Shown here in pieces: positions 42,196 through 61,214 of a stretch of DNA of 64,000 nucleotides. Numbering within the stretch: the stretch's first letter is position 1; the number at the start of each line of letters is the position of its first letter. The DNA is from Pelosinus fermentans JBW45 (GTDB taxonomy: Bacteria > Bacillota > Negativicutes > DSM-13327): NCBI RefSeq assembly GCF_000271665.2, contig NZ_CP010978.1, positions 4,060,501-4,124,500 on the forward strand, written 5' to 3'. A program made the translations under genes and the position numbers. The notes under the pieces are model-generated. The model searched no databases. It was not told the DNA's origin and was given only the letters and a program-made list of their open reading frames with translations.

Positions 42196-42196
42196 C

Positions 42197-42541
42197 CTAT
42201 TGATCCTCCTCATGAAAGTCCGGCGTATTCGCTGACTGCTGCATACGTCGAATAGCCGCAACCTCAGCATCAATGATCCAGCCAACAAGAACCGCGGGTA
42301 TCAAAACTTTCCGCCAGCCCAAAATCTCGCAGATTTGCTGAATGGCCGCCCGGCGCTTTTCTGAGTTCTCCATATTGTCAGCCAAGCGGTCCAGTTCAAA
42401 AATTACACTGCGGATAAAATCACGCAGCGGACTGTCTGATAGTGCCTTATACAAAAAATGCAGGACAACGGCCAAAACATTAACCGCCAGGATAACCCCG
42501 GCGGCCCATGCGAAGATTTGTGATTCTGTTGTTGATAACAT
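42197..42541 (-). CDS. probable phage holin
   Basis: A 114-aa protein with an N-terminal membrane helix (residues ~8-30, WAAGVILAVNVLAVVLHFLY), a charged helical middle and a second hydrophobic segment (KVLIPAVLVGWIIDAEVAAI). The layout and its place just before the amidase fit an LLH-type holin. It starts directly after the XhlA-like gene stop. Confidence 0.65.
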   Translation of the reverse strand: MLSTTESQIFAWAAGVILAVNVLAVVLHFLYKALSDSPLRDFIRSVIFELDRLADNMENSEKRRAAIQQICEILGWRKVLIPAVLVGWIIDAEVAAIRRMQQSANTPDFHEEDQ

Positions 42542-42958: not shown

Positions 42959-45900
42959 TTATCCAAGGATAGAAACCGTCGGACTGGGATTACTTGCCTT
43001 GCCAAACCAATTTTGGGTGGTCGTATCAGTTGGCGGGCAATTAAGCAGGCTTATCTTTGCTTCACTGCCGGTAAAGCTTGTCGTTAATCCGGTATTTTCT
43101 TCAAAAACTGCCGCCCACACAATATCCACATTCGTAGTGATTTGCTGAAAGCTGGCTAATTTGAACATATGCAGCTCTTCATGATAAGCTCCCTCGAAAT
43201 GCATATAATAGAGTGCTCTTCCTCCAATTATTTTAGCTGTGATATTACGGAATCGTAGTTCTGGGAGCTTAAAATCAAAGACTTTTGGCGGAACAGGATT
43301 TTGATGAAATAAACCATATACCAGGGAAAAGGCATGAACCGACTGATGTGAGACAATATGAATATTCTCTGCTATAATCGTTCCGGTAAATGGTCTTCCA
43401 AAAGTGTTGTTTAACTCGATCATATTATTTCCATGTGTCATGCTGGATACGTTCTGATAATGGAAGGTGCAGTTAGTAATTGTCACCAATCCATTACCCG
43501 AACCAATCTGAACCCCAATATTATGGAAGATTACCCGGTCGATAAACAAATTGCTGAAATAATGGTGAACGTCAATTCTGTTGATCTCACAAGCCGTAAA
43601 ATGAATATCTTTTACACACTCCATAGCCGTTGCTCCCCAGTATCCATTGATCCTGCAGCCATGAACCCGTACACCCATGCAGTTTCTCATGCGCAAAAAG
43701 TAACCGGACGTTCCTTTTGTCTGCCAGTTGGTATCACGTCCAGCAGTGTTGAAACCATTAACATTTTGAATATCAACATTGTAAGAGTCCCAAATATAGA
43801 ATATAGCATTTTTAAACACGCTGTTTCGTAAAGAATTCCTATGGGGACGAATTGTAAAATCCTTAATTAACGTATTGTGCCGATTTACGTTTAATAGATT
43901 TAAATAGACGTCATTGGAAGTTTCAATGCTTACATCACACCCTATGAAGGTAAGCCTCTTTTCCGGTATAAAAGTGTAGGTAAAGACGAAGGTGGAAGTT
44001 ACGGTTTCACCGTTGACAACAACAGGATTTCCTCCCGCGTTGCTCCATTCGGCTGTCAGCGGTCCTGTACAAATACCGTGCATATCGTGTACTAATAATT
44101 CTTCTCTGGGTACACTGTATAATTCACCGTAGTTGTCTCGTACACAATAAGGGTCTTCGGTCAGTTTTATTACCGTATTGGCCGGCAGACTGTTATCGAT
44201 CATTTCAAAATACGATGAACCTTCCAAAAGCTGCGCCTTCTGCTCGGCACTCACGGGATATGCATAATAAACATCACGGCTGTCTCCCACCACATACCAT
44301 CGGGAATTATTTGCATCTGTCATCTTGATTGTGCTTCCGGACAAATCAACGTCCGTCATCACAGAAATGGCATTTTGGGAACCTTTATAGATAATTCCCC
44401 CGTGCTGTTCCACCCGGACATGATTGGCATTCGCATAGGTATGAGCCTGACTGATTGCTATTTCATCATCGGTAGTGCCATCAAGGGCGGCCCCGAACAT
44501 TTTGTAAGAGACAAAATCTCTATTGTCAATAAGAGCAAACAGACTATTGTCAAGCCGGATTGCCCAAGCTTTTCCTTCGTCAGTGCCTGCTATTCGGTAT
44601 AAAGCGCCCCCTCCGTCATGAACGGTTTCTCTGCCTAACGTCTTGACCCGTAAGCCGGCCTTCAATGTAATATCGGCTTTCATATATCCAATATTTTCAT
44701 AGTATGCAAGTGTTGCAGGCAAAAGAGAGTATGAGAGTTTCCCTTGGGAATTCAGGGCAGCAATTTTTCCTTCATCAACCGCTCCCTGTGACTCTTGAAT
44801 AATATCAGGCAGTTTTCCTCTGCCGCCGTCTCCGCCCTTCTTTAAAGCCAAATCAGCCAGGCTGAAGAAGCAGGCAGCATCTGAGACCGTCATAACCGGT
44901 GAAGCATAGAACAGATGATGTTCTTCCACGCGTTTGAGTATGTCAAGCAGCACAGATACGCTGTTGACGTAATAGGCATAACCCAGATGCGCTCCCAGAG
45001 ATGGAGCATTCGCAATATCATTTCTGGACCACCACTCCGGAAACTGCTCGTTGGCCCATCGAACGGCTCTGGCATAGTCTTTTGCATCCAAAGGTACAGA
45101 CCACAAGGCCGGCCATAACTGCGTCATGATCCACGGATGAAACGGTGCCGGTTTCAGATTTTCATCCATTTCTGCATTTACTTCATATTTATAGCAGCCT
45201 TCATATTCATCATATATTGTGCCTAAGACGGCAAGCAGCTCATCCTTTATTGGAAGTAAGGTATCCGCATAAGCTTTGTCCTTCAGATAGTTAGAAAATA
45301 TATTGATAGCGCTTACCAGTCCGGCATAACTTTCACAGTTATTCATCAAATACCTTGCTGCATATTCCTCGCCGCTTGGATGCTGATCATTCTGGAAAGC
45401 TTTTGTTAATCCCCGATCCAGCTGCGATGTTAAATTTTGCTGAATGATCTCTTTAATGACCTGTCCATACGTATACTCTTCATGAGGAGATGGAAATCCC
45501 AGCCATTTGCTATCATTCGTGGCTGACAAATATTGATCAATGGCCCACACCAAGCGTGCCGCATAAGAATCATGAGCACTCTCGTCGCGCGTTGTACGAA
45601 AATCAGGGCTGCTGTCTTTCCAAAACCACTGCGCTGTTCCATGATACTCACCCACGCATTTCCATAGGATGTCATGATCCTGGCATGTGTCTCCTAATAC
45701 GGCATTCTCTGAAAATACAGCGGTATCTCCGGCAATACCGGCATGCCGGCACTCCCACACCCGTCCTTTCGTATTCGGTCCGGCTACTTTCATTCCAACC
45801 TGATAGGCTTTTCCTGCTACCCACAAGCGGATGCAATGCTTTATAGCAGTCCGTATATACTGCCCGGCTTCTATCGGAAATTTAGCTGCCATTAAACCAC

Positions 45901-47086
45901 ACGCCATACTACCTGAACGCCATTCTATACCAGTTGCCGGTGATTGCCGCCATGCCCCTTCATAGCCTTGGCATCCGGCATAGCGCAATACTGCCGTCCC
46001 TGACTTTACTTCTGCATCAACTTGCACTTCCGGTTCTTTATTGTCCAGCATGCCTGAAGTAACAACTCTCCATAAATCCCCTGTGGAAGTCAAAACGACG
46101 TCGCCTCTCTTCTGATCGGCAGCTGACCAGGTATGACTGGCTTCCGGTATGATATACCGGTCTTTAAACAAATCTATTGTAAAGGGTACTTTCGTTTCTT
46201 GGGCTTTAACTGCATACCGTGTGCCCCTGGCATAAATCTCCGTTACTTTTTCTGCTCCGGCTGCAATCCGGCACAAATGCAGCTTATCGCTATAACGGGG
46301 CAAAGAATCCTCCTGACCGGCTGCACGCTTTTCATAAAAGAGATTTCCTGAACGCTCCAGCCAGACATCCGTAATGTTTGAAGCTTCAAAAGTTTTCGAC
46401 CAGGGCTGGATTTCCACCCGTAAGGGAATGGCTGTCAGTGTGGGAAACATGGCAACCAGAAAAGGAAAGTTCACGGCTAAGTTTTCCGGATCTGGAATGG
46501 CATCCCAGGCAACGATGTAAGGATGAAACTCTCCTTCACTGAACAGTTGATCGATCGTTGCGATTTCCTCACCCCTCTTGCCCCCGACGGTTTCAGCATT
46601 GCCGCCATTAGCAGGAAGCGCTGCCGGCGTATTTTTCAGATCATGATAATCACCGGTTAATGCAACGTCCGAGAACGCAGGAAGGTCCTCTTTGGTGTGC
46701 GTATGCCTGGCAGGCGCGGCTCCCGCTTCCTGTGGAGTATGGGTATGGGCAAAATCAATAATGTGCGTTTTAGTATGGGTGTGTTCAGCAGTGGCAAAGT
46801 CAGTGTCATGTTTGCCGTTCAGCATATCGGCATTACCGCCATTGGCCGGCAGCGAAGAAGGTTTGTTGCGCAAATCATTATAGTCGCCTGACACTGCGAT
46901 GTCAGCAAGCACAGGAAAATCAGTAATCTCTGCTTTCTTATGGCTATGGGCGACCGGGGCAAAATCACTGGCGTGTTTACCTTCCAGCGTCTCTGCGTCA
47001 CCTACACCCTTGGGTATATTCTTAAGATCCAGGTAATCGCCGCTTGTAGCAACTTTTGCTAACTCGGGTAATATTCTACATTTCAT
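42959..47086 (-). CDS. giant tail fibre/receptor-binding protein with beta-helix
   Basis: A 1375-aa putative host-recognition fibre. Residues 1-165 hold repeats of the type GDYxDLKNxPxxLPANGGNAxxxxGK and HTHTKxxxIxDF, a known phage fibre pattern that also ends the smaller fibre at 53995. The middle (~480-780) is helical and Trp-rich (SAHDSYAARLVWAIDQYL, PAPFHPWIMTQLWPAL), like an alpha/alpha-barrel glycan-binding or hydrolase domain. From ~850 to the end it reads as a right-handed beta-helix (VFKNAIFYIWDSYNVDIQNV, ITNCTFHYQN). It could bind or cut a surface polysaccharide. It lies downstream of the radical SAM cassette, 108 bp after it. Confidence 0.8.
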   Translation of the reverse strand: MKCRILPELAKVATSGDYLDLKNIPKGVGDAETLEGKHASDFAPVAHSHKKAEITDFPVLADIAVSGDYNDLRNKPSSLPANGGNADMLNGKHDTDFATAEHTHTKTHIIDFAHTHTPQEAGAAPARHTHTKEDLPAFSDVALTGDYHDLKNTPAALPANGGNAETVGGKRGEEIATIDQLFSEGEFHPYIVAWDAIPDPENLAVNFPFLVAMFPTLTAIPLRVEIQPWSKTFEASNITDVWLERSGNLFYEKRAAGQEDSLPRYSDKLHLCRIAAGAEKVTEIYARGTRYAVKAQETKVPFTIDLFKDRYIIPEASHTWSAADQKRGDVVLTSTGDLWRVVTSGMLDNKEPEVQVDAEVKSGTAVLRYAGCQGYEGAWRQSPATGIEWRSGSMACGLMAAKFPIEAGQYIRTAIKHCIRLWVAGKAYQVGMKVAGPNTKGRVWECRHAGIAGDTAVFSENAVLGDTCQDHDILWKCVGEYHGTAQWFWKDSSPDFRTTRDESAHDSYAARLVWAIDQYLSATNDSKWLGFPSPHEEYTYGQVIKEIIQQNLTSQLDRGLTKAFQNDQHPSGEEYAARYLMNNCESYAGLVSAINIFSNYLKDKAYADTLLPIKDELLAVLGTIYDEYEGCYKYEVNAEMDENLKPAPFHPWIMTQLWPALWSVPLDAKDYARAVRWANEQFPEWWSRNDIANAPSLGAHLGYAYYVNSVSVLLDILKRVEEHHLFYASPVMTVSDAACFFSLADLALKKGGDGGRGKLPDIIQESQGAVDEGKIAALNSQGKLSYSLLPATLAYYENIGYMKADITLKAGLRVKTLGRETVHDGGGALYRIAGTDEGKAWAIRLDNSLFALIDNRDFVSYKMFGAALDGTTDDEIAISQAHTYANANHVRVEQHGGIIYKGSQNAISVMTDVDLSGSTIKMTDANNSRWYVVGDSRDVYYAYPVSAEQKAQLLEGSSYFEMIDNSLPANTVIKLTEDPYCVRDNYGELYSVPREELLVHDMHGICTGPLTAEWSNAGGNPVVVNGETVTSTFVFTYTFIPEKRLTFIGCDVSIETSNDVYLNLLNVNRHNTLIKDFTIRPHRNSLRNSVFKNAIFYIWDSYNVDIQNVNGFNTAGRDTNWQTKGTSGYFLRMRNCMGVRVHGCRINGYWGATAMECVKDIHFTACEINRIDVHHYFSNLFIDRVIFHNIGVQIGSGNGLVTITNCTFHYQNVSSMTHGNNMIELNNTFGRPFTGTIIAENIHIVSHQSVHAFSLVYGLFHQNPVPPKVFDFKLPELRFRNITAKIIGGRALYYMHFEGAYHEELHMFKLASFQQITTNVDIVWAAVFEENTGLTTSFTGSEAKISLLNCPPTDTTTQNWFGKASNPSPTVSILG

Positions 47087-47172: not shown

Positions 47173-47209
47173 ATGGAACGAATGCTGTGTTAAATCACAT
47201 TCGTTCCAT
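47173..47209 (-). repeat. 12-bp hairpin at the end of the radical SAM cassette
   Basis: ATGGAACGAATG and its complement flank a 13-nt loop. One arm is the last four codons (MERM) of the gene at 47195-48406. It may mark the 3' end or a processing site before the fibre gene; no T-run follows. Confidence 0.5.
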
Positions 47210-48406
47210 TAGAAGGTATTTTAGACTGGCCATATGGCGAAAACTTTCGAAGTGCGGTGCATTAAAATCAATGTATTCTTTGATTTGCTGCATTTCAATA
47301 GAACAGTGTGCACCGATTCCTGCCGCAGTGGTATGCATCGCAGCACAATACTGGGATTGTAATACTGCTGGAGAACTATTGAAATCGGCAGTTATTGCTT
47401 TCTCACCTGCACTCATATGCTCAAGCGCGATCTTTTGCGGAAACTCGGGAATTTTACACTCTACAATGTGCCGGTATTTTGTCACCATTTGCAGGTAATA
47501 CATTGTCCAGCGATCATTTAGATAATTAAGTGCTTTAACGCTTTGTTCACGGTTATCTGGGGTAAACGACCGGTTGATCATTTCTACAATCATTCCCAGG
47601 GTCTCAAAATATTTCTCACTTCGTAAATCAAAGAAACATTTAGCAATTGCATCCAGCAATTGCAGCTTGTAGTAATTGAACTTAGAATATTTAAATGTAT
47701 TGGCCGTAAAAATTGGCACAACCTCTTCTTCAACTACTGTAACCAGTTCTTGACAAGGTCCGAAATAATCTAGCATAGTAGCAAAAAAATCAAACATTTG
47801 AAATACTTTGCAGTGCCGCATCAAATTCACAATATAATCCGTATGGCCAAACAGCGTGCAAATCCCTTCAATCATGACATCCATTTGCTTACAATAGTCC
47901 TGGAACATACCTATTGTAAGACGCCTATCCGGATGATTAAACTCTTCATGCTTGATTAAGAAGCATTTGTATGTGAAATATTCTTCATGAAGTTTCTCGG
48001 AAAAAACTTGTTTACTTTCTTCTATCAGCCTGATAAATTCCTCGATGTATTGCAACACTGCCGGCTCAGTTGATAGATAATGAACAATACCGATCAAATT
48101 CTGATAAATGAATAGTTTATTCTCTAAATCTGTTTCGGTCTTCAGCATTTCCATCAGAACCGTTTCATCATTGGTTTCCATTATTTGGGCATTGCGCAAT
48201 AATACCGGCGACAGTACCCGGGTAAATATCACCTCTCTCTTCGCTAACAACTCTATACCGCCATTATCGTTAATTTCCTCTTCTTTAACGATGCGTTCTA
48301 CGAAGTCGTCTGCTTGCAAGGCATTATTGAGAGCAGACTCCCACTCTTGATACTCCGAATCCTCTTTAAGGATTCGGTATACGCGCTCAGGAAGAAAACC
48401 GATCAC
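47195..48406 (-). CDS. unrecognised helical protein of the radical SAM cassette
   Basis: A 403-aa protein, mostly helical, with no signal peptide and no motif that I recognise. It starts four bases before the stop of the radical SAM gene upstream (ATGA overlap), so translation is coupled. The C-terminus (AGEKAITADFNSSPAVLQSQYCAAMH and AGIGAHCSIEMQQIKEYIDF, by key residues) is less acidic and could be a separate small domain. Possible roles are a leader-recognition partner, a scaffold that holds the fibre for modification, or a tail protein. None is supported by a motif. Confidence 0.6.
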   Translation of the reverse strand: MIGFLPERVYRILKEDSEYQEWESALNNALQADDFVERIVKEEEINDNGGIELLAKREVIFTRVLSPVLLRNAQIMETNDETVLMEMLKTETDLENKLFIYQNLIGIVHYLSTEPAVLQYIEEFIRLIEESKQVFSEKLHEEYFTYKCFLIKHEEFNHPDRRLTIGMFQDYCKQMDVMIEGICTLFGHTDYIVNLMRHCKVFQMFDFFATMLDYFGPCQELVTVVEEEVVPIFTANTFKYSKFNYYKLQLLDAIAKCFFDLRSEKYFETLGMIVEMINRSFTPDNREQSVKALNYLNDRWTMYYLQMVTKYRHIVECKIPEFPQKIALEHMSAGEKAITADFNSSPAVLQSQYCAAMHTTAAGIGAHCSIEMQQIKEYIDFNAPHFESFRHMASLKYLLMERM

Positions 48407-49554
48407 TTTCCATCACTCCTTGGTAAGCTATAGTTTAACGCCCATCGTTGATACTTCTGAAGGTATCCCGCCAGCATTGTCTTTTCTTCTAGAGTCAAAT
48501 GATTTATCCATGCAGAGATCTCATGGTAAAAAACTTGGATGGTTTCGCATTGATGCGGACAATAATAATCATCAAAATGTTCCCCCTGCTGGATATAGCG
48601 CTCATAACGGCAGCCCCCGTCACAAAGGCAATCTACAGGGCATCTTTGACAATCATCATGACTGCACTTTCTTTTAATGACATCAAAAACCTCATTGTTT
48701 ATCCCGTTTTCGCAAATATTGCCGACTTTATAGCGGCCATAATCCAACTGACTGAAAATGGTGCATGGATACAAATCTCCATTGGGACGCATGACAACAT
48801 AATTGCCGGCATCACAAGAGGAGATATTATTATCCTTCACCATGACAGCAATGATCTTGTTCATCCAGTCCCTTGGTATATACGGTGTGGTTTTGCGAGC
48901 TAGATCCTCACCTATGGTGTATAGCGCACTGCGTAAGCCCAATCCCAGCTTACTTGAAAAGCCTGAACGGAATTCTTTCTGGTGCGCTACGACAAAATCG
49001 CCATGCACCAATCCGGGATACTCGCCCTGCAATGCCTTAAAGCCGAGATAGGTGTTTAACAGATTGGCCACATTATCATCATTGATCACGCATTTAACAT
49101 CAATAGCTACCTTGTGATCCAACGTCCAGATAATCTTCTTAAAAACCTCATCTTGTATATCTTCTCCATTCAAACGGGGACGGTTGGTATTGCCTGTACC
49201 GTCCCAGGAAAGTTGTATTTCGGGGATAGGATATGCCGGATATATCTCTTCAATAAAACGTTCATAGTTTACAGTGGCGCTTGTAACCATTTGAAAGCGG
49301 CATGTATTCCAGTACTTTGCCAATACCTTTTCCATAAGCTCCAGCTCTACCAGAGGCTCACCGCCAAAAAAGATTATACGCGGCTGTTCAAAGGCAAAGG
49401 AAGCAATCAGTTTATCAATATATTCCATGGGCATAGTCTCCCGCCGCTCCCGGTTCCTGATATAGCAATATACGCATCGGTTAGGGCAGAACTCGGTTAA
49501 AATCAGGAATATATCACGGAAGCGCCTATTGAACATTGGTTTCACCGGACACAT
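48403..49554 (-). CDS. radical SAM/SPASM-type protein (fourth of the cassette)
   Basis: A 383-aa radical SAM protein. The 4Fe-4S motif is CPNRCVYC (Cys 23, 27, 30), followed by FFGGEPLVE. The C-terminal SPASM-like set has CDAGNYVVMRPNGDLYPC, CSHDDCQRC, CLCDGGC and YCPHQC. This is a typical peptide- or protein-maturase architecture with two auxiliary clusters. It is not a close copy of its two neighbours: the GGE motif is GGEP rather than GGEL/GGEV. It overlaps the previous gene by 13 bp and the next by four. Confidence 0.82.
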   Translation of the reverse strand: MCPVKPMFNRRFRDIFLILTEFCPNRCVYCYIRNRERRETMPMEYIDKLIASFAFEQPRIIFFGGEPLVELELMEKVLAKYWNTCRFQMVTSATVNYERFIEEIYPAYPIPEIQLSWDGTGNTNRPRLNGEDIQDEVFKKIIWTLDHKVAIDVKCVINDDNVANLLNTYLGFKALQGEYPGLVHGDFVVAHQKEFRSGFSSKLGLGLRSALYTIGEDLARKTTPYIPRDWMNKIIAVMVKDNNISSCDAGNYVVMRPNGDLYPCTIFSQLDYGRYKVGNICENGINNEVFDVIKRKCSHDDCQRCPVDCLCDGGCRYERYIQQGEHFDDYYCPHQCETIQVFYHEISAWINHLTLEEKTMLAGYLQKYQRWALNYSLPRSDGK

Positions 49555-50729
49555 CCCCCCTCTCTGCCAAAAGGTAGATTTTCAAGATCATAAATGGATA
49601 CAACCCTGTTGTTTGCTGGTGTTGTCGGGCAGAGTTCGTTATATACCTGCCACTCACAATGGCGCATGGCGCAGGTCACACAATCAGCAGGATCGGCATT
49701 AATTATTTTTTTTATATTATCACCTTGGCAATCAAAGCAATGCAGCAGCGGATTTTGACATTGCATTGGCTTGTTGAAAATCGTAAAGTCACAATGTCTC
49801 CGGAGCTTAGCAACTGATTCAGCATTAAGACCCGTTTTGATATATCCGATACGAAACTCTTTTTTAATGAACTCGTCGTCGAGGTACTTGCTGCAGGGGT
49901 ATATATGACCATCAAAGTCAATATAAAGCACTTTGCCCATACTGCTGCAGCCAAGCTTACGTACTAGATTCGAAGCCGAACTAAGCACCTCTTTGGCAAA
50001 ATTCATTGGCTCCCAGTTGAGATATGTCCAGCGCTGCCCAGGATACGCATATCGTTTAAGATACTCTTTGCCGACATATCTTAATTGATCTTTGAATGTT
50101 TCAATGAAAACAGCATTTTGATACTTTTCATTGCATTCCTGATAGTCAAAAATAAAATAATACTCAAACTTCAAGCAATTGCTGTCCAGCAAAAACAACA
50201 GACTATTGTAGAGATTATCCATGGTATCAGGTGTAATGGCATATCGTACAATGACCTGCCTGTTCCAGCGGCTTTTGCCAAGCAGCTTAATTTTCTCGTT
50301 AAAAAAACTGTCGTCAAATTGCGGATTGTCGGAACGCCTTGTTGCTGTCACCGAATGGGTGCCATCCCAAGACAGCTTTGTTCCATTGGCATTTAAAAGT
50401 CCCAGGTCAATCCAGTCCATAATTTTTTCAAGATAGGTTCCATTCGTTGTCAGCCGGATCGTCAATTTCATATCGCGCTTCTTTTCAATTTTTCTGATTT
50501 GTTTAAGCCCGTGCATTACTTCATCACTATGGAGAGAGAGTTCTCCTCCGCACAGATTGATCCAAAGTTCATCTCCTAGCGGAAGCATGTAAAGTAAACG
50601 TGACAAATCATCGAAACTATGTTCCGTTCGTTCTTTGCATTTGCCGTAAAGAGGGAAAAAACAATAGCTGCAGTTCAGATTGCATAAGGATGATACCGCA
50701 TATTCGATTCCTGTCACCTGCTCATACAT
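49542..50729 (-). CDS. radical SAM protein (third of the cassette)
   Basis: A 395-aa radical SAM protein with CNLNCSYC (Cys 16, 20, 23), NLCGGELSLH, and TKLSWDG. The C-terminal Cys set differs from SPASM: CSSMG...YPCSKY, then CDFTIF, CQNPLLHCFDC, CVTCAMRHCEW and CPTT. Its closest relative is the neighbour at 50730: both share the LGKS(K/R)-x-x-x-VxVRxAxTPDT-x-(D/N)-NLY stretch. The two genes are adjacent (stop and start touch), so they are a tandem duplication that has diverged, perhaps to act on different residues. Confidence 0.85.
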   Translation of the reverse strand: MYEQVTGIEYAVSSLCNLNCSYCFFPLYGKCKERTEHSFDDLSRLLYMLPLGDELWINLCGGELSLHSDEVMHGLKQIRKIEKKRDMKLTIRLTTNGTYLEKIMDWIDLGLLNANGTKLSWDGTHSVTATRRSDNPQFDDSFFNEKIKLLGKSRWNRQVIVRYAITPDTMDNLYNSLLFLLDSNCLKFEYYFIFDYQECNEKYQNAVFIETFKDQLRYVGKEYLKRYAYPGQRWTYLNWEPMNFAKEVLSSASNLVRKLGCSSMGKVLYIDFDGHIYPCSKYLDDEFIKKEFRIGYIKTGLNAESVAKLRRHCDFTIFNKPMQCQNPLLHCFDCQGDNIKKIINADPADCVTCAMRHCEWQVYNELCPTTPANNRVVSIYDLENLPFGREGGCVR

Positions 50730-51968
50730 TTATTCACCGCCTTTCCGAAGGGGAAGCTGATGATAATTGCCAGTGCTTAACCGTTCAAAATTCCAGTCTT
50801 GTACAAAATCATAGCGATCCGCAAACATTTTCTGTTCCTCTTCTGATAATCGGATATCCCCTTTGCGAAGCTCAAAGGCGCAGCGCTCCATGCCCCTCAT
50901 TACACAGGTCTGACAATTCCTCGCATTCAGTTGCCCTGATCTGGCCTTATTTAGCGCAGGGCATTCAAAGCAATGCAAATTATTGCATGACAGATAATCA
51001 CAACTGGGAGCGTGCATATAATCATCAATGAATTGGCAGACAGTTTTTTCATCAAATCCGGTATGGATATCCCCTAGCACATAGGGAGCAGCCGCACTGT
51101 TTTTCATTGTATAATCGCAGTTCGAATAGGGATCAAAATATCCGCAGGGGAAAATACGGCCATCATAAGCAATGTAGAGAGACCGGCCAAGATGGCGGCA
51201 GCTTACCGAACGTTGTTTATTATCAGTGGTCTTCCTTACATGATCGACAAAGTAAAGGCTGTCCCAATTAGAAAACGTCCAGCGATTCTGCCGATTATGA
51301 TAACGCCTGCAATATTCACCGATAATCATTTGCAGCTGTGCATGAAACTGTTCCGCAAATTTCTGGCTTTTATATGCTTCACACTCAGTGAGAAAGTAAT
51401 ATTCCCATTTCGTACAGCCGGTATCAAGCAGATATAAAACCGCTTCGTACAAATCATCCACCGTGTCAGGAGTTACCGCTGTGCGTACCAATACCGATTG
51501 ATTGTATTTGCTTTTTCCCAGCAGCCGAATCTTACTGTTAAAAAACTCGTCGGTAAACAGCGGATTCTTGGGCTTCCTCGACCTGGAGGCAGAATAGATT
51601 CCGTCCCATGATAATTTTGTGCCGTCAGGCTCCAGCAATCCCTCGTCCATCATGTCGATAATGCCTTCCATGTTGGTACCATTCGTGATAACGGTAAAAT
51701 TCATTTTTAAATCTTGTTTTCGCTCCAGCTTTTTCAACTCTCTTATTCCGTAACGCATCTCATCCAAAAATAAAGAAACTTCTCCGCCGGTAAGCTTTAT
51801 TTCCAGCGAATCCCGGAAAGGCAGCTGACTCAGAAAGCATGCCAGTGCATCAAAGTCTGTAAAGATGTCGTTGCGTTCTTTAATTTCTTTGGTTTGAAAA
51901 CAATAGACACAGTCCAGGTTGCAGTAGGACGACACTTTATAAGTAATTTCTTTGATTAGTGAAAACAT
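50730..51968 (-). CDS. radical SAM protein (second of the cassette)
   Basis: A 412-aa radical SAM protein with CNLDCVYC (Cys 16, 20, 23), KLTGGEVSLF and TKLSWDG. Additional Cys are in CRHLGRSLYIAYDGRIFPCGYF, CDYLSCNNLHCFECPAL and CQTCVMRGMERCAFE, enough for two auxiliary clusters. It starts 21 bp after the Cys-rich protein gene. It is paralogous to the protein at 49542-50729, with the same spacing of the first motif and much of the middle. The likely role is thioether or C-C bond formation in a ribosomal peptide; the substrate is inferred from position. Confidence 0.85.
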   Translation of the reverse strand: MFSLIKEITYKVSSYCNLDCVYCFQTKEIKERNDIFTDFDALACFLSQLPFRDSLEIKLTGGEVSLFLDEMRYGIRELKKLERKQDLKMNFTVITNGTNMEGIIDMMDEGLLEPDGTKLSWDGIYSASRSRKPKNPLFTDEFFNSKIRLLGKSKYNQSVLVRTAVTPDTVDDLYEAVLYLLDTGCTKWEYYFLTECEAYKSQKFAEQFHAQLQMIIGEYCRRYHNRQNRWTFSNWDSLYFVDHVRKTTDNKQRSVSCRHLGRSLYIAYDGRIFPCGYFDPYSNCDYTMKNSAAAPYVLGDIHTGFDEKTVCQFIDDYMHAPSCDYLSCNNLHCFECPALNKARSGQLNARNCQTCVMRGMERCAFELRKGDIRLSEEEQKMFADRYDFVQDWNFERLSTGNYHQLPLRKGGE

Positions 51969-51989
51969 AGAGCTCCCTCCCGTGCTGTA

Positions 51990-52640
51990 TTAGCTCCATC
52001 CTCCACAGTTTTGATTATGGCAGGTATTATTATTACAACCCTGACAAGCCAGCTGGCAGGAAGTCTGACAGCTCACCTGGCAGGTACGAGCGCATAAGTC
52101 ACCATTCCACCAGATGTTTTTGCCATCAAGATAAGCATTAAACCTCACCAGATTATCACGAACTGTGTTAATCGTATTTGCTGCAGCTTTGCTCCCTGCC
52201 GCCTGATTGGCAACCGCTGCCAGACCCAATGAGGCGGTATCTCCGGGGATCATGCTCTGACTGGCTGCCTGCAGGTTCTTATACGAATTAATAAAATTGT
52301 TAATATTATTAATACTTAAACGCTGCTGTCCACCAGTAAAAAAGGTTTTGGTAGAATTATATAAACTTTGACTGCCGCTGTCATAGCCGGGCAGGCGGGG
52401 AGCTTTTAAGTTGTCAGGTACAGGCTGCCTCAGGCTGCCGCTGTTGTTCACACGGCCCCCACCCTGAGGAACAGCAGGATTATAATAGATCGAGGTCACA
52501 CCGCATAGTTCATTATGAACCACCAGAATGACATCGATAATTTGTTTGATTTCAAAGGGTGTAACTTTAGTCGTATTAGGAACGGCAGCGTCAGGAATCG
52601 TATATTGCGCACTGCCTCGCCTAGCATAAATCGGCATCAT
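51990..52640 (-). CDS. Cys-rich-tailed protein, candidate radical SAM substrate
   Basis: A 216-aa protein. Residues 1-175 are Gly/Asn/Ser/Gln-rich with little helix-breaking hydrophobic core (NNINNFINSYKNLQAASQS) and one isolated Cys at 46. The last 34 residues carry eight Cys at 183, 187, 191, 195, 199, 202, 207 and 212: C-X3-C-X3-C-X3-C-X3-C-X2-C-X4-C-X4-C, ending GGWS. This regular spacing is like thioether-crosslinked RiPP cores, while the long N-terminus is unlike a normal leader. It starts in an ATGA overlap with radical SAM gene one, and AGGGG stands upstream. A structural tail component with a modified tip is an equally fair reading. Confidence 0.75.
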   Translation of the reverse strand: MMPIYARRGSAQYTIPDAAVPNTTKVTPFEIKQIIDVILVVHNELCGVTSIYYNPAVPQGGGRVNNSGSLRQPVPDNLKAPRLPGYDSGSQSLYNSTKTFFTGGQQRLSINNINNFINSYKNLQAASQSMIPGDTASLGLAAVANQAAGSKAAANTINTVRDNLVRFNAYLDGKNIWWNGDLCARTCQVSCQTSCQLACQGCNNNTCHNQNCGGWS

Positions 52641-53977
52641 GATTCCCCTTTCGTATTTTGTATAATGTCCAACCACGTATAAAGCGGATATAACTTTTTC
52701 AGGAAATATTGCCGGAAGCTTGGCAGCAATATCTCTTCATACTCATCCATATATCCATAAAATTTAGTCAGACTAACCCCAAACTCCGGAGTTTCAATAT
52801 CCATATCGCACAGCTTGTCAAAATACTCTTTGATGGTCAGATTTGTCCTGAGGATATTTAACCGTTTACTGCGTAAATTAGCAGTATTCATCAACCGCTG
52901 CTGAAATGCTTTGGTCACTTGGAAACTGACAAGCAGCGTATCGCACCATGCTGAAGTCGGTGTATGCCAGTCGCCGCTTTGGGTCAGGTTTTCTGACGGA
53001 CAGCCGCCGCGACATACCGGTTTTGCTTCACAGTCCTTGCACCGCTGATTCTCTCTATGAATTTTGTACTCAGGATTGACAATTTTGGAGGGGTCAATCT
53101 TACCGCTTAAAATATTGCCAATCTTCAAGTGTTCATACTGGTCATCGATGGTATGACGCTGATGGCAAGGTAAAATATCCCCGTCGATGCCAATGGAACA
53201 CCATCGGCTTGTACCTGCCGTACAAGGTTCAATCTCTTCTTTTACAGGCTCCAGAACATGTTCGATGTAGTCGTCAATAACTTTGAAAGCAATATTCTTA
53301 CGGTTATTCACATCATTTGCAATCACCAGGAAATACTCGTATAGCTCTTGAAGAGAATTCCTGAATGCAAGCAGCTGTTCTTCGGGCCAGGCAACATCCG
53401 TTACCGGTACGGGAGCAATATTGTAAATTCCCATACCAACAATATGCTCTACTCCCTTGGCCATATCGGCAGCATCTTCCGGCAGCACCGTCATGCGGGC
53501 CTCCAGTAAGTAGCCCAAATCCCGCTCAATCAGCCTTTTGATATTACCGGCAACGATATCGTAAGAATGGCTGCGATTCCGGTCATGAACTGCCTTAAGA
53601 CCATCAATTGATATTAGCACAAATATCTCATGTTCTTCGATATATTCCAGCATTTCCTCGGTCAACATGGTTAGATTCGTGGTAATACCCAGCCGGGCAC
53701 TGTATTTTTTTTCTTTGACGTGATCGGCGAGAGCTTTGATGACCGGCCAATTGAGCAGCGGTTCCCCGCCAAAAAGGTTAATCATAAAATATTTCATATC
53801 CGGATAATGCTGTTTAAAACCTTCATAGGCAATATCTACTATGCTGACAGCAGTTTCCGGCGTCATGAAGGCACTTTCCTTGCCTGTTTCAAAACAATAG
53901 GTGCAACTCAGATTACATGAGTTAGTAATGTTTAATGTAATGGCATTTAACTGAAAATGTTCTTGAAAAGTAGACAT
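52637..53977 (-). CDS. radical SAM/SPASM maturase (first of the cassette)
   Basis: A 446-aa radical SAM enzyme. The core motif is CNLSCTYC (Cys 21, 25, 28), followed by NLFGGEPLL and ISIDG. The SPASM region CTAGTSRWCSIGIDGDILPCHQRH, CKDCEAKPVCRGGC and WCDT gives the seven-Cys pattern of anSME/sactipeptide maturases (two auxiliary 4Fe-4S clusters). A C-terminal ~100-residue extension follows. It begins 17 bp after the fibre gene at 53995 with a GAGAGGAG RBS, and overlaps the Cys-rich gene by four bases. That close coupling makes the Cys-rich protein its best candidate substrate. Confidence 0.88.
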   Translation of the reverse strand: MSTFQEHFQLNAITLNITNSCNLSCTYCFETGKESAFMTPETAVSIVDIAYEGFKQHYPDMKYFMINLFGGEPLLNWPVIKALADHVKEKKYSARLGITTNLTMLTEEMLEYIEEHEIFVLISIDGLKAVHDRNRSHSYDIVAGNIKRLIERDLGYLLEARMTVLPEDAADMAKGVEHIVGMGIYNIAPVPVTDVAWPEEQLLAFRNSLQELYEYFLVIANDVNNRKNIAFKVIDDYIEHVLEPVKEEIEPCTAGTSRWCSIGIDGDILPCHQRHTIDDQYEHLKIGNILSGKIDPSKIVNPEYKIHRENQRCKDCEAKPVCRGGCPSENLTQSGDWHTPTSAWCDTLLVSFQVTKAFQQRLMNTANLRSKRLNILRTNLTIKEYFDKLCDMDIETPEFGVSLTKFYGYMDEYEEILLPSFRQYFLKKLYPLYTWLDIIQNTKGES

Positions 53978-53994: not shown

Positions 53995-54753
53995 TTATAG
54001 ATAAATGGCTCCCAAAGCCTGCCAGCCGCTTATTTTATAAATTTTTGCAAGATTGTTTGCCGTATCAATCCAAATTTCTTTATCCACTGCAGGATTTGCT
54101 GGTGCAGCAAGACCAATCGTAATGCGCACCCCTCCAACGGTTGCTGCATTGCCGCCGTTAGCAGGCATCGTGGCTGGGAAATCTGTGATTTGGCTTATCG
54201 TATGCAGATGTATCGTCGGAGCTGCGCCTGCCTGCACTGCCGTCACATGATGAGGATTATTTTTGTCATTGATATGTTCCTTTAAATCCTGCCGCGTTGC
54301 AAACAGCAGCGTATCGTTAATGATAGCTGTCACATTAGAGGCCGTACCTACGACTGTAATCAGGTCCAAAATCAACTCGACAACCCGTGAACTTCCTTTT
54401 GGCGGCAGCCACTCACTTTGGCCTCCCGAATTGGTTATGCTGTATAATATTTCTCCTTCCTGAGGATCTTTGGCATAAACGCCGACTTCACGAATAAATA
54501 ACCCTGTATCGATGTCCTTATTATGCAGTACTACCCGGATACGGCTTGTTCCATCACCAATGACCGCCATATCCTGTATTATTAACGTCATTTTAGGCGC
54601 GATCAGCTGCGTTAAGGTATCAATACTTACCCCGTCTGCCAGTAATCCGTCGCCAACCATCACCTTAGTAAATTCAAGTTTAACCCCTGTTTGCGCTTTT
54701 GCTTGCAAAGCCCGGCCTTTTTTGGTTAGGGTCATCCCCGTATATTCTGCCAT
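53995..54753 (-). CDS. phage tail fibre/collar protein (P2 gpH-like N-terminus)
   Basis: A 252-aa protein with the N-terminal DUF3751-type tail-collar fold (MTLTKKGRALQAKAQTGVKLEFTKVMVGDG) found in P2 gpH and related fibres. The C-terminal part has TIHLHTISQITDFPATMPANGG and the ending WIDTANNLAKIYKISGWQALG. The same LPANGGNA repeat occurs in the 1375-aa fibre, so the two may share assembly or recombine. GGGAGG precedes the ATG at 54753. It is the last standard tail gene before the radical SAM cassette. Confidence 0.85.
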   Translation of the reverse strand: MAEYTGMTLTKKGRALQAKAQTGVKLEFTKVMVGDGLLADGVSIDTLTQLIAPKMTLIIQDMAVIGDGTSRIRVVLHNKDIDTGLFIREVGVYAKDPQEGEILYSITNSGGQSEWLPPKGSSRVVELILDLITVVGTASNVTAIINDTLLFATRQDLKEHINDKNNPHHVTAVQAGAAPTIHLHTISQITDFPATMPANGGNAATVGGVRITIGLAAPANPAVDKEIWIDTANNLAKIYKISGWQALGAIYL

Positions 54754-54820
54754 TGTATCGCCTCCCAAGGCTATATTATAATATTGCGAACTTGACCTTA
54801 AGTAAGCTTCTGCTGTGTCT

Positions 54821-55393
54821 TTACAGCACCGTCCCTTCCGGGTAAATCGTCATTGTCTTAGCAATTCGTTGTGCACCGCCAAAGTATAAATACATTTTCC
54901 TTTCCCGATACACAAAGATATCTTCCAGCCACGAGCGGACATTCTTTACTGCCGAAACCAATTCCGTCACCCGATCGAAAGTCGCTGTATCCTGAATAAG
55001 ATCCGTACATTCGATTCGAAAAAAATACGGCTTTCCGCCGTATTCAAACCACTCTGCTATTTTGGCAGAACCCAAAATAAGGCGGGCCATTTCTTCCACT
55101 ACCGCCGGCGTGCCTTTACGGCGATGCCAGGGAATGGAATTCTTCACAAGAGTGCGCTTGGCCGCAAGTGACAGACTGTCGTCCCAGAAATCAACATGCC
55201 ATTGCCAGGCCAACAATTCAACAATATCTTCGTCAGACCAGTCCATATTGGCAAGAATGTGCAGCAACTCTCGTTGTACATCAATACACTGTATCTGCTC
55301 ATTGGCAGCCTCAGCTACTGCGACCGTGCGTTCATCATTTTTTAAGCTGGAAGGCAGGAGATCAGCCATCGACACATCTTTAAAATCAGGCAT
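54821..55393 (-). CDS. phage tail protein I (P2 gpI-like)
   Basis: A 190-aa baseplate protein of the P2 gpI family, which helps to attach fibres to the baseplate. Family stretches are LLHILANMDWSDEDIVELLAWQWHVDFWDD and IPWHRRKGTPAVVEEM. The ATG at 55393 has GGAGGAGAGG upstream and overlaps the end of gene J by 8 bp. Confidence 0.9.
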   Translation of the reverse strand: MPDFKDVSMADLLPSSLKNDERTVAVAEAANEQIQCIDVQRELLHILANMDWSDEDIVELLAWQWHVDFWDDSLSLAAKRTLVKNSIPWHRRKGTPAVVEEMARLILGSAKIAEWFEYGGKPYFFRIECTDLIQDTATFDRVTELVSAVKNVRSWLEDIFVYRERKMYLYFGGAQRIAKTMTIYPEGTVL

Positions 55394-56501
55394 TTTCCTC
55401 TCCTCCATACAAGATGCTGCTCTCTTTTACGACAGCAATCTGAGGAATCAGCAGCTCTTTAAATGCCGGCTGTCTGACTTCCACCCGTTTTGCTCCTGCA
55501 TTTTCGATGCGCTTAACGAGTTCGCTGGGATTAATATCCCGGCCGATTCTGGAGCGCTGCCAAAGTACATACTCCTCAATTGCGGCATCGACCTGCTTTT
55601 TGATATGCCCTTTGAGGGGTATGTCTTCTTTGTATAAAAAATAGGTCAGATCAATGTTATACGCAATCACTTCAGGCGGCTCAACCTGAACCTTGTCGGT
55701 CAGCGGCCGCCTCTTTTTGTCATCGCATACAGACAGCACTTCATCCAGCAGCGCTTGGCCGGGAATTTCGCCTCCTGTCAGCAGCGGGCAAATTTTCACA
55801 ACACCAGGCTGAGGTGAATATACAGCCACATCCATAATTTCCTGAGAGGCTGTTTTACTCCAATATTCATATGCGCCCTCCGGCCCGGTCGTGGAAAATC
55901 GTTCAGGAGCCTGCCTGATACGTTGGCGGAAAGGCTCATCGGTTTCCCTGTCGGCTCCGCCTTCACTGACCGTTAGATTCGTCACCGACTGAAACCAGGG
56001 AAACGGGTCAACAATTTGACTGATCGTTCCTGGCAGGAAATCATTGCCGCCGCTGCCTTCTGTCAGGCTTTCGGCGGCGACTTCCATACTGGTCTGCCCG
56101 ATCGCCACAAGGGCATCTTCCAGCGTACTGAAAAACACATCGCCTCCGGGCGTAGCCCTTGTACCGGCCGGAATAGTCACAACCTTGTCGCGAGGTGCCG
56201 ACAGCATAAAGCGCATTGTCGTCTTAGCTCTGGATGCAGGCAGGCGGGTAGTATCGACTAAATAGCCGATATGGTCAAGAAAATCTCCGGTGGCATAAGC
56301 CAGCAAATTTTGTTTGGCGCTTTGATCCATCAATACCCGCTCCTGAGCCAGCATGGAAGCAATAGACAAAAGCAGCAATCTTACCGGATCGCCTTTCGCC
56401 AGTACCCTGCCGGTCTGTTCCTGATAAGCGGTGATGACATAGTTTTCCACATCGGAAGTAGCTGTATTGACAAACTGGATTTCAGGTATATTATTAGCCA
56501 T
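55386..56501 (-). CDS. baseplate assembly protein J
   Basis: A 371-aa baseplate J protein (P2 gpJ/T4 gp6 family), which forms the wedge that triggers sheath contraction. Family features are ETDEPFRQRIRQAPERFSTTGPEGAYEYW near residue 190 and the C-terminal VKRIENAGAKRVEV. It overlaps W by eight bases and I by eight, as usual in a P2-type operon. Confidence 0.92.
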   Translation of the reverse strand: MANNIPEIQFVNTATSDVENYVITAYQEQTGRVLAKGDPVRLLLLSIASMLAQERVLMDQSAKQNLLAYATGDFLDHIGYLVDTTRLPASRAKTTMRFMLSAPRDKVVTIPAGTRATPGGDVFFSTLEDALVAIGQTSMEVAAESLTEGSGGNDFLPGTISQIVDPFPWFQSVTNLTVSEGGADRETDEPFRQRIRQAPERFSTTGPEGAYEYWSKTASQEIMDVAVYSPQPGVVKICPLLTGGEIPGQALLDEVLSVCDDKKRRPLTDKVQVEPPEVIAYNIDLTYFLYKEDIPLKGHIKKQVDAAIEEYVLWQRSRIGRDINPSELVKRIENAGAKRVEVRQPAFKELLIPQIAVVKESSILYGGEENA

Positions 56502-56802
56502 TTACTCTAACCCTCACTTTCGGTGCAAGTTTCCCCTCCAGGGCATCCCCATCGTAGATAACCTCCACTACCTCGGCGCGCGGCTCATATTTGCCGACGG
56601 CAGCGATAATCTCGCCGGTCAGCTTGGCCTTGGCCGCAGGCAGCGGACTGTCCAGCAAAGCCAGATCGACGCCGAAACTGCGGTCAAGCGGCACAGAACA
56701 GCGCACGGTAGACAGGATTGTCCTGATATTCTGCAGGATCTCAGTCATTCCTTGGGCACCAAAATCGACCTTGTCCAGCGTAGCGGTAATATCAAACTCC
56801 AT
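56494..56802 (-). CDS. baseplate wedge protein W (gp25-like)
   Basis: A 102-aa protein of the gp25/gpW lysozyme-fold family. ILQNIRTILSTVRCSVPLDRSFGVDLALLD is the conserved core with the EPR motif later (KYEPRAEVVEV). It nucleates sheath assembly at the baseplate. It overlaps gene J. Confidence 0.92.
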   Translation of the reverse strand: MEFDITATLDKVDFGAQGMTEILQNIRTILSTVRCSVPLDRSFGVDLALLDSPLPAAKAKLTGEIIAAVGKYEPRAEVVEVIYDGDALEGKLAPKVRVRVNG

Positions 56803-56858
56803 GCAGTTTTCCCCTCTCTATCATGCTTGTTGACCCGCCCCAAATTCCTGTGGGTTCA

Positions 56859-57266
56859 TCAAGCACTGCTTCTTTTATCAATATATTCCTTCAGTGTCAG
56901 ATTGACGGTGGCAACAATTACATTGCCTTTGTTGTCAAGATAGTCATACGTTTCCGATAAGCTTTCCAATACCCATTTATCCTCACCTTGCGGCTTACCG
57001 CCAATAACCAGTCTTGCAGCCTGTCCGCCATTTAACATTTTCCGTAGTTTAGCCAACTCTTCCACCGGGTTGACCCCCAGTCCGGCGTTCAGTTTCATAC
57101 TGAAGCTGACCTGATCCAGCGCCGCTCCCAGATATTCCAGAATGGGCTTGCGACCCAGTACTTCATGGCTTGCATACCGCGCCTGCCCTTGCCGGTTATA
57201 ACCGTCAAAGGTTTTCACCCGTTCATCAGATACTTCAAATACAATATCGCCAAATGTCCCAAGCAA
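56859..57266 (-). CDS. phage tail protein U (P2 gpU-like)
   Basis: A 135-aa tail protein related to P2 gpU, the tail terminator/completion family. It begins MLGTFGDIVFEVSDERVKTF and contains YASHEVLGRKPILEYLG and LVIGGKPQG. In P2 this gene stands before D; here it lies between V and W, a modest rearrangement. Confidence 0.82.
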   Translation of the reverse strand: MLGTFGDIVFEVSDERVKTFDGYNRQGQARYASHEVLGRKPILEYLGAALDQVSFSMKLNAGLGVNPVEELAKLRKMLNGGQAARLVIGGKPQGEDKWVLESLSETYDYLDNKGNVIVATVNLTLKEYIDKRSSA

Positions 57267-57314
57267 AAGCGCTCCTCCTTTCCTGATATAACGTTTGCCG
57301 TCTAATCGGGCCTG

Positions 57315-57797
57315 TCAATGAGAATGGTGATTGGTATTGCCCCCTGAATCAATAATGCTGCCGCCGGCGTGAATATTGCCGCTCACGCTGACGTTGCCGG
57401 CAATGCTGATTCCCTGCGCTGCCGTAATATTGATCTTACCTGACGTATTGACAGTCATCGTCCTGGTTTGCCGGTCATATTCGACAACAGCCCCGTCGGC
57501 AAAACGGATCTGCCGCTTCTCGGGCGAACTGACAGCAGGACGGTCAACCTCAGAATAAACTGCTCCCAGCACAAATCCCCGGGAAATGCCATTCGGCAAA
57601 AAAATACAGATAACGCTTTCCCCGATATCCGGCATACAGTAATCCTTATTTTTAAGCGTATTGGCTACAATAACCGGCAAATCATGGGATACCATGTTGT
57701 CCCTGTCTTCAAATACTACCCTGACGGTTGCTTCTGCGGCATTAACCGAAGATACCCTGCCCAGGCGGATAAGATTTTGCAACGTATTGTCCATCAA
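57315..57797 (-). CDS. baseplate spike protein V
   Basis: A 160-aa baseplate assembly protein V: an OB-fold (LIRLGRVSSVNAAEATVRVVFED) and a C-terminal triple-stranded beta-helix spike of short repeats (KINITAAQGISIAGNVSVSG), ending in NTNHHSH. The final His residues can bind iron at the spike tip, as in P2 gpV. It pierces the outer membrane. It overlaps D by four bases. Confidence 0.9.
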   Translation of the reverse strand: MMDNTLQNLIRLGRVSSVNAAEATVRVVFEDRDNMVSHDLPVIVANTLKNKDYCMPDIGESVICIFLPNGISRGFVLGAVYSEVDRPAVSSPEKRQIRFADGAVVEYDRQTRTMTVNTSGKINITAAQGISIAGNVSVSGNIHAGGSIIDSGGNTNHHSH

Positions 57798-58846: not shown

Positions 58847-59058
58847 CCTTCATCACCTGTCCGCCAGGGAGGAAGGTCTGCTGACTTCTCCGTAACCGCA
58901 TCGGGCAGCTCAAGCAAAATCCCGGCAGAAAAAATGACTACTTCCCGAAGAGCCGTATTGGCTTCAATGAGTGTAGTCATGTAACTTTCATCTTTGTAGT
59001 TTTTATAGGCAATCATATCCCAGGTATCACCCTGAACCGTTGTATAAACGTTAGCCAA
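58843..59058 (-). CDS. phage tail protein X (LysM-like)
   Basis: A 71-aa protein of the tail protein X family, a small LysM-like domain (VQGDTWDMIAYKNYKDESYMTTLIEAN) near the hub. It overlaps the tape measure and D genes. Confidence 0.9.
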   Translation of the reverse strand: MANVYTTVQGDTWDMIAYKNYKDESYMTTLIEANTALREVVIFSAGILLELPDAVTEKSADLPPWRTGDEG

Positions 59059-61196: not shown

Positions 61197-61214
61197 GCAA
61201 TCTTGACCATATTT

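What the first reader, a model, noticed from the sequence alone, without database searches (positions are those of the whole stretch)
47195..53977. Four radical SAM enzymes and a Cys-rich protein embedded in a contractile-tail operon
Between two fibre-type tail genes, with overlapping or touching ends, lie four radical SAM proteins (CNLSCTYC, CNLDCVYC, CNLNCSYC, CPNRCVYC), a protein with eight Cys in its last 34 residues, and one unknown helical protein. All share the strand and translational coupling of the tail operon. Known families: SPASM-type enzymes make thioether or C-C bonds in RiPPs. Inference: the phage or tailocin carries a ribosomal peptide or tip that these enzymes crosslink, perhaps to make an adhesin or a toxic tip stable outside the cell. 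I know of no described system with this layout, but I could not search.
Basis: partly seen in the sequence, partly recalled or inferred. Interest (0 to 1): 0.95.

Follow-up and report, generated by a model that had tools for sequence, protein, structure and literature searches.

The report
Radical-SAM cassette for Cys-rich phage-tail protein
A tailocin (a headless, phage-tail-like killing particle) carries, between its tail-fibre genes, a module of four radical-SAM enzymes, a helical-repeat protein and a protein ending in eight regularly spaced cysteines; the same module recurs in unrelated phages, which suggests that some phage particles carry chemically cross-linked Cys-rich parts, a use of this chemistry that I found described nowhere.

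Summary
Four radical-SAM genes, a protein with 8 Cys in its last 34 residues and a helical protein lie coupled between two fibre genes of a contractile-tail operon. No head genes flank it, so it is a tailocin locus; sister species carry related complete prophages without the cassette. The cassette recurs in a podovirus-like prophage and five other distinct phage contigs at about 40% identity. In the tree the A, B/C and D enzymes form three supported clades, and A and D share a branching order. The end of the Cys-rich protein stays 59% identical while the rest falls to 19%. Enzyme A is closest to the SCIFF thioether maturase CteB, and the Cys tail resembles SCIFF. The helical protein models as a TPR-like solenoid. 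In 42 of 74 other viral loci with an A-like enzyme, a Cys-repeat ORF lies within 5 kb on the same strand; the cultured phage SPN3US has such a locus with its Cys-rich ORFs unannotated. Most likely the enzymes install thioether (ranthipeptide-like) links in a particle protein. The chemistry, presence in the particle and role are inferred, not shown.

The parts
53995..54768 (-). Short tail-fibre protein (257 aa), gene just upstream of the cassette
   Evidence: PF12571 4.9e-6 above cut-off; phrog_7037 tail fiber 7.6e-50
52637..53977 (-). rSAM-A, 446 aa radical SAM/SPASM enzyme, CteB/PapB-like, lacks CteB's N-terminal ~90 residues
   Evidence: PF04055; PapB model 208 bits, cut-off 340; 5wgg CteB 5.8e-26 over 95-436; clade of 7, 100/99
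51990..52637 (-). Cys-rich protein (215 aa), proposed substrate; last 34 residues CARTCQVSCQTSCQLACQGCNNNTCHNQNCGGWS
   Evidence: eight homologues, C-terminal part 59% identical versus 19% for the rest; no Pfam/NCBIfam/PHROG match
50730..51968 (-). rSAM-B, 412 aa
   Evidence: PF04055; B/C clade 100/100
49542..50729 (-). rSAM-C, 395 aa, paralogue of B (39-41% identical)
48403..49554 (-). rSAM-D, 383 aa, with CPNRCVYC and CDGGCRYERY
   Evidence: PF04055; clade of 7, 100/99
47195..48406 (-). 'LPERIY' helical protein, 403 aa, predicted TPR-like alpha-solenoid
   Evidence: AlphaFold pLDDT 78.9, pTM 0.79; best PDB matches are TPR solenoids, none E<0.001; two phage structural homologues TM 0.74/0.68; homologues in all six full cassettes
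47175..47207 (-). 10-bp inverted repeat around the stop codon of the LPERIY gene, without a T run
   Evidence: sequence
42959..47086 (-). 1375-aa tail-fibre-type protein downstream of the cassette
   Evidence: phrog_16586 1.8e-22, phrog_23059 1.2e-12, tail fiber
41668..42288 (-). Endolysin at the distal end of the tailocin operon
   Evidence: phrog_435 3.5e-51
54821..63789 (-). Contractile-tail genes: tail protein I, baseplate J, spike, late-control D, LysM, tape measure, tube, sheath and others
   Evidence: phrog_48, phrog_28 tape measure; one-to-one homologues in sister prophages incl. sheath 56-61% identical; other names by reading the sequences

Best explanation
The cassette is a maturation module for a tail-associated protein of a contractile tailocin. 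Ribosomes make the Cys-rich protein, whose N-terminal ~170 residues anchor it or act as a long leader. Radical-SAM enzymes A, B/C and D, each using SAM to abstract a hydrogen at a chosen residue, link the tail cysteines to neighbouring residues as ranthipeptide-like thioethers (about -2 Da each), making a rigid, reduction- and protease-resistant C-terminal knob. Enzyme A lacks the N-terminal leader-binding region of its relative CteB; the TPR-like solenoid protein presents the substrate instead, as a recognition subunit or chaperone. The knob is then displayed at the fibre/baseplate end, where it most plausibly helps to bind or pierce the target surface. Shown: gene set, coupling, conservation, joint inheritance, relation to SCIFF/PapB enzymes. 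Inferred: chemistry, role of the solenoid, presence in the particle, function.
For: Six distinct phage loci hold A + CysR + B/C + D + LPERIY. A, B/C and D are separate supported clades, and A and D share the order (G086,(L004,L018)),(L016,(L020..)). Strongest conservation is the Cys tail: C182,186,190,194,198,201 plus Q187,Q191,Q199,H207,Q209,G212 invariant in eight sequences. CteB is the nearest solved structure with SPASM cysteines kept; the tail profile matches SCIFF peptides, hhalign probability 92%. SCIFF and PapA carry rSAM thioethers (PMC8172795, PMC9413430). Fibre-locus position and absence of the cassette from the matching site of sister prophages. Wider pairing of phage rSAM with Cys-repeat ORFs: 42 of 74 loci, 49 same-strand and 0 opposite-strand within 5 kb, 6 farther away; some Cys repeats lie within Hoc-like decoration proteins or in a nozzle-like 721-aa protein (by reading).
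Against: No mass or biochemical data. All four enzymes are below curated equivalog cut-offs. Two of seven type-I loci lie by thyX, not fibre genes, and in L064 only A and CysR were found. The tail has no Asp/Glu acceptor, so the link type is open. AlphaFold gives no useful model of the Cys-rich protein (pLDDT 36), so virion anchoring is not supported by structure. Cys could instead hold metal or disulfides.
Confidence: 0.62

Rival explanations
1. The cassette makes a free RiPP (a small toxin or signal) that is only co-transcribed with the tailocin and released by the same lysis; the Cys tail is cut from its long leader and is not part of the particle.
For: RiPP-type enzymes and a Cys-rich C-terminal core after a poorly conserved N-terminal part fit a leader-core layout; the operon ends in lysis genes (endolysin).
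Against: No protease, exporter or immunity gene in the cassette. N-terminal parts of about 160-490 residues are very long for leaders and vary freely. The same principle appears with Cys repeats inside full-size virion-type proteins, e.g. Hoc-like proteins in L143 and L155.
Confidence: 0.15
2. The Cys-rich tail is a metal-binding, Fe-S-binding or disulfide knob, and the rSAM enzymes modify something else in the tail (for example a fibre) or in the host.
For: Regular Cys and a conserved His could bind metal; in one L018 paralogue two Cys (C206, C211) are lost together, as expected of a ligand or bond pair.
Against: The nearest relatives of both enzyme A (CteB) and the tail (SCIFF) form an enzyme-substrate pair; CysR follows A directly in every type-I locus; Cys-repeat ORFs cluster near rSAM genes in 42 of 74 other loci. 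The paired loss fits a cross-linked pair equally well.
Confidence: 0.13
3. The enzymes are auxiliary metabolic or host-takeover genes (as proposed for the 11-12 rSAMs of Campylobacter phages), or a defence module (viperin-like), parked in the fibre locus.
For: Campylobacter phages CP220/CPt10 carry many rSAM genes, read as metabolic (PMC2853527). Weak viperin matches in PADLOC.
Against: Viperin matches cover only the shared rSAM core and are far below the NCBIfam cut-off (52 versus 180 bits for A). No metabolic partner genes. Constant pairing with a Cys-rich protein and a solenoid, and translational coupling inside a tailocin operon that has no genome to replicate.
Confidence: 0.07
4. Decayed or non-functional passenger genes.
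For: The cassette is rare: 2 of 380 genomes of the class, only the window's own of 398 in the phylum sample.
Against: All frames are intact; catalytic CxxxCxxC and SPASM cysteines are kept at 36-41% identity across phages; overlapping starts and stops are kept.
Confidence: 0.03

Closest known systems
SCIFF / CteA-CteB (thermocellin; TIGR03974 maturase, PDB 5WGG)
   Same: Cys-rich C-terminus with CQxSCQxxC core; A is nearest to CteB; SPASM enzyme beside its Cys-rich substrate
   Different: SCIFF is a short peptide of Clostridia with one maturase carrying an extra N-terminal region; here a 198-521 aa protein, 3-4 enzymes, a TPR-like partner, in phage or tailocin loci
PapA-PapB (freyrasin) ranthipeptide system (NF047865)
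   Same: Best NCBIfam model for all four enzymes; residues spaced by three
   Different: PapB links Cys to Asp/Glu in CX3D/E; the phage tail has CX3C and no Asp/Glu after the first Cys in 7 of 8 homologues; scores below the cut-off
CXXX-repeat target system (TIGR04114/TIGR04115)
   Same: rSAM beside Cys every four residues; gut phage locus L012 and SPN3US lie near it
   Different: Window enzyme A scores 100 (cut-off 350), window CysR has no match
QhpD maturase of quinohemoprotein amine dehydrogenase (TIGR03906)
   Same: Second-best model for A; precedent (PMC8172795 and family knowledge) for rSAM thioethers in a protein subunit rather than a released peptide
   Different: 166 bits against 453 cut-off; unrelated substrate and context
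R-type tailocins / PBSX-like elements
   Same: Contractile tail, sigma-like regulator, lysis genes, no head genes
   Different: No rSAM or Cys-rich maturation module was found described in tailocins
Campylobacter group II phages (CP220, CPt10, IBB_35)
   Same: Many phage-borne rSAM genes, one 34% identical to a wider-class enzyme
   Different: Interpreted as metabolic, with glycine amidinotransferase (PMC2853527); no type-I cassette found

Membership tests
Contractile tailocin | Sheath, tube, baseplate and lysis genes present | tested here: met
Contractile tailocin | No capsid, portal or terminase genes in the element | tested here: met
   tblastn with head proteins of two sister prophages against window plus 40 kb: only the tail terminator matched; host genes follow the regulator
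Contractile tailocin | Particles released and bactericidal | not testable with these tools
   needs induction and electron microscopy
Radical SAM/SPASM enzymes | CxxxCxxC motif and Radical_SAM domain | tested here: met
   PF04055 above gathering score for all four
Radical SAM/SPASM enzymes | Auxiliary-cluster cysteines of the SPASM region | tested here: met
   A: C252, C271, C313, C316, C322, C326, C345 invariant and aligned with CteB; B/C and D also keep C-terminal Cys sets; TIGR04085 above cut-off for D
SCIFF system | Maturase above TIGR03974 cut-off 425 | tested here: not met
   best 137.5 bits
SCIFF system | Short precursor with six Cys in 45 residues | tested here: not met
   215 aa, 8 Cys in 34; profile resemblance only
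PapB ranthipeptide maturases | Above NF047865 cut-off 340 | tested here: not met
   208, 88, 95 and 75 bits
PapB ranthipeptide maturases | CX3D/E motifs in the substrate | tested here: not met
   alignment
CXXX-repeat target system | TIGR04115 enzyme and TIGR04114 repeat | tested here: not met
   100 bits versus 350; no repeat match
Ranthipeptides (as chemistry) | Thioether from Cys to a non-alpha carbon | not testable with these tools
   needs mass spectrometry and NMR
Prokaryotic viperins | NCBIfam viperin above cut-off | tested here: not met
   52 bits versus 180; partial PADLOC matches only
TPR / alpha-solenoid proteins (LPERIY) | Significant fold match to TPR | tested here: inconclusive
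   all-alpha model; top PDB hits are TPR solenoids but E >= 0.02

The most novel reading that the evidence does not exclude
Radical-SAM cross-linking of Cys-rich segments is a widespread, unrecognised way of maturing phage particles: many tailed phages and some tailocins carry covalently stapled Cys-rich tips, fibres or decoration proteins made by dedicated enzymes, in several independent sequence styles (CxxxC tails, CTCNCNY repeats, CTCTC runs, CQxCQ repeats).
Probability: 0.5. Interest if true: 0.95.

Novelty: new variant of a known kind. Interest (0 to 1): 0.9.

Why it matters
Known thioether-forming radical-SAM systems act on small peptides or a few enzyme subunits. Phage particles carrying such links would be a new class of virion modification, could explain many unannotated rSAM genes in phage genomes, would offer natural stapled binding tips for study, and is directly testable in cultured phages whose Cys-rich genes were missed by annotation.

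Tried and rejected
Single-protein scans of viral and genome collections with CysR found nothing, and an alignment-based genome-contig scan also nothing: the N-terminal part is too variable. tblastn in deposited phages with CysR and rSAM-B gave no match. Matches of rSAM-A in 'Bacteriophage sp.' fecal records were followed: most carry SCIFF peptides (CGECQTSCQSACKTSC), so they are probably bacterial contigs and were dropped as evidence. Weak phylum-wide CysR hits were also SCIFF. Many hits of the Cys DNA pattern were low-complexity reading frames without rSAM and were dropped. AlphaFold of CysR failed. Defence (PADLOC) reading rejected. Campylobacter rSAM clusters examined as precedent: no type-I cassette. 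Papers on RiPPs in phages, tailocins with rSAM, phage tails with rSAM: none describes this; only open-licence PMC papers were searchable.
Full report
WHAT IS THERE. The order is fibre 1 (54768-53995), rSAM-A, Cys-rich protein (CysR), rSAM-B, rSAM-C, rSAM-D, a 403-aa helical protein ('LPERIY', after its conserved N-terminus), then fibre 2 (47086-42959). Junctions overlap, touch or are 17-21 nt apart, except a 108-bp gap before fibre 2. Pfam Radical_SAM is above its gathering score for all four enzymes. CysR has exactly eight Cys in its last 34 residues. CysR and LPERIY match no Pfam or NCBIfam family and no convincing PHROG.

THE ELEMENT IS A TAILOCIN. The operon holds sheath, tube, tape measure, spike and baseplate genes, endolysin and fibres. 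Beyond the window it ends with a tail-terminator-like gene and a sigma-factor-like regulator, followed by host genes. Terminase, portal, protease and capsid proteins of two related complete prophages in sister species (G005, G006; sheath 56-61% identical) find nothing in the window or 40 kb beyond it. Those prophages have homologues of nearly every tail gene, but no rSAM cassette between the matching fibre gene and the lysis genes. The cassette is therefore a variable insert at the fibre locus.

THE CASSETTE RECURS. One genome of another family in the same class (G086) carries the whole set, without C, in a podovirus-like prophage with terminase, portal and capsid-like genes (the virion genes were read from sequence, not by profile). 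IMG/VR gave further phages: L004, L016 and its near-identical L021, L018 and L020, and L064/L053. Counting near-identical contigs once, there are seven distinct loci including the window. Six have A + CysR + B/C + D + LPERIY; L064 has only A + CysR in its 110-kb record. L018 has two CysR and two LPERIY genes, and L016 has two LPERIY genes. L017 holds a lone D. A scan of IMG/VR with the rSAM-A alignment found 275 contigs with a relative, of which the best 80 were kept; there is a gap between the type-I set (37-41% identity) and all others (31% or less, apart from one 33% fragment), so the family boundary is clear.

INHERITED TOGETHER. A maximum-likelihood tree of 30 enzymes gives three supported groups: A (7 rows, 100/99), B/C (8 rows, 100/100) and D (7 rows, 100/99, plus the long-branched L016_11232, 97/93). 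A and D share the branching (G086,(L004,L018)) and (L016,(L020..)). That is what one module moving between phages would give.

CYSR. Pairwise identity among eight CysR proteins averages 59% in the last ~36 residues and 19% before them. Invariant: C182, C186, Q187, C190, Q191, C194, C198, Q199, C201, H207, Q209, G212. C206 and C211 are missing together in one L018 paralogue (to A and S), which would fit a paired link but is a single case. No Asp or Glu follows the first Cys in seven of the eight. The tail profile aligns with SCIFF peptides (hhalign probability 92%, E 6e-7 for this single comparison).

ENZYMES. The nearest solved structure to A is CteB, the SCIFF maturase (5wgg, E 5.8e-26), aligned from CteB residue 95 on, so A lacks CteB's N-terminal part; all seven C-terminal SPASM cysteines are kept. 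The best NCBIfam model is PapB for all four enzymes, always below cut-off; QhpD is second for A. SCIFF and PapA products carry Cys-Thr or Cys-Asp thioethers of -2 Da each (PMC8172795, PMC9413430). Acceptors in the phage tail must differ from PapB's, since Asp/Glu are absent.

LPERIY. AlphaFold gives an all-helical solenoid (pLDDT 78.9, pTM 0.79). Foldseek's best PDB hits are mostly TPR proteins, none significant; two phage proteins of unknown function (Myoviridae sp. ctYA416 and ctWb16) match at TM 0.74 and 0.68. A peptide-presenting or chaperone role is an inference from the fold and from the missing N-terminal region of enzyme A.

TAIL ASSOCIATION. By profile, the window cassette sits between fibres. 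L018 follows a weakly tail-like protein, and its phage has a cluster of tail-fibre proteins near by. L021 sits in a T4-like structural region with gp25-like and wedge genes. G086 and L004 sit among fibre-like genes by reading. L020 and L064 sit beside thyX, although L020's phage has a sheath gene.

A WIDER CLASS. Of the 74 more distant IMG/VR loci, 42 have a same-strand Cys-repeat ORF within 5 kb: 49 ORFs in 649 kb near the enzyme, none on the opposite strand, against 6 in 534 kb farther away and 5 in 249 kb of other loci held here. The loci are not all independent (several are near-identical contigs), and the set was selected by an enzyme, so this shows pairing, not frequency. Styles include (CTCNCNY)n, which belongs to PHROG 26958 of unknown function, CTCTC runs, CxxxC with Q/E, and CQNCEGVACQSCQ. 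Two Cys-rich segments head proteins matching Hoc-like decoration PHROGs (L143, L155), one heads a 721-aa protein that I read as podoviral nozzle-like (L141, L040), and one (L179) is followed by SDERLKTNI, which I recognise from memory as the start of fibre chaperone domains (Pfam found nothing). A second cassette style with a fibre-type N-terminus (YDELAPSLQ) lies in the same phage as L004 (L085). In the cultured Salmonella phage SPN3US, two CGGTC-type Cys-rich ORFs after a virion structural gene are unannotated or mis-framed, next to rSAM genes, and both are conserved in an Erwinia phage. These make the idea testable in laboratory phages.

HOW IT PROBABLY WORKS. CysR is made, held by LPERIY, and its tail cross-linked by A, B/C and D, giving a stapled knob assembled at the fibre end of the tailocin. 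Why several enzymes are needed is unknown; different links or sequential steps are the simple guess. Function as a binding or piercing tip is the least secure step.

NOVELTY. The chemistry and enzyme family are known; their use on phage or tailocin particles was not found in the open literature searched. Subscription papers and bioRxiv were not searchable. I therefore rate it a new variant of a known kind, with a categorically new reading (a general way of maturing phage particles) at about even odds.

Noticed in passing
L181:5142-5531 and 5545-5946 (SPN3US, NC_027402.1) and L182:3142-3952 (Erwinia phage pEa_SNUABM_29): Two conserved Cys-rich ORFs next to rSAM genes gp102/gp103; the SPN3US record annotates gp100 in the wrong frame and the Erwinia record annotates the opposite strand.
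   Followed up: partly
L085:7555-10793 (IMGVR_UViG_3300042922_000712, same phage as L004): A second cassette style: fibre-type N-terminus with CSGNCTGTCQTGCYTHCSGSC tail, a 199-aa protein and two rSAM genes; similar order to gut phage locus L012 (8442-11245).
   Followed up: partly
L158:6625-7155, L161:7892-8482, L173:13382-14254, L179:12080-12502: Phage proteins with (CTCNCNY)n repeats beside rSAM genes, PHROG 26958 of unknown function; L179 ends in SDERLKTNI, like a fibre chaperone start.
   Followed up: partly
L143:11163-12683, L155:11080-12780: Hoc-like decoration proteins with a Cys-rich N-terminal segment, just downstream of an rSAM/SPASM gene.
   Followed up: partly
L018:6613-8178: CysR paralogue that has lost the seventh and eighth tail cysteines together (C to A, C to S).
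   Followed up: no
L006:8935-11671 (phage Phass-1, OQ749652.1): Under code 15, two rSAM genes and a 174-aa Cys-rich protein; the record annotates fragments only.
   Followed up: partly
L180:15842-16210 (CP220 gp032): Hypothetical protein of CxxC repeats near the portal gene in a phage with many rSAM genes.
   Followed up: no
L063:1-3288: 1096-aa phage tail-like protein ending in CQTTCQ repeats, no rSAM in the stretch held.
   Followed up: no
47175-47207: 10-bp inverted repeat around the LPERIY stop codon, no T run.
   Followed up: no
L005, L008-L011 (MT83xxxx 'Bacteriophage sp.' fecal records): Several records deposited as phage carry SCIFF peptide systems and are probably bacterial contigs.
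   Followed up: yes
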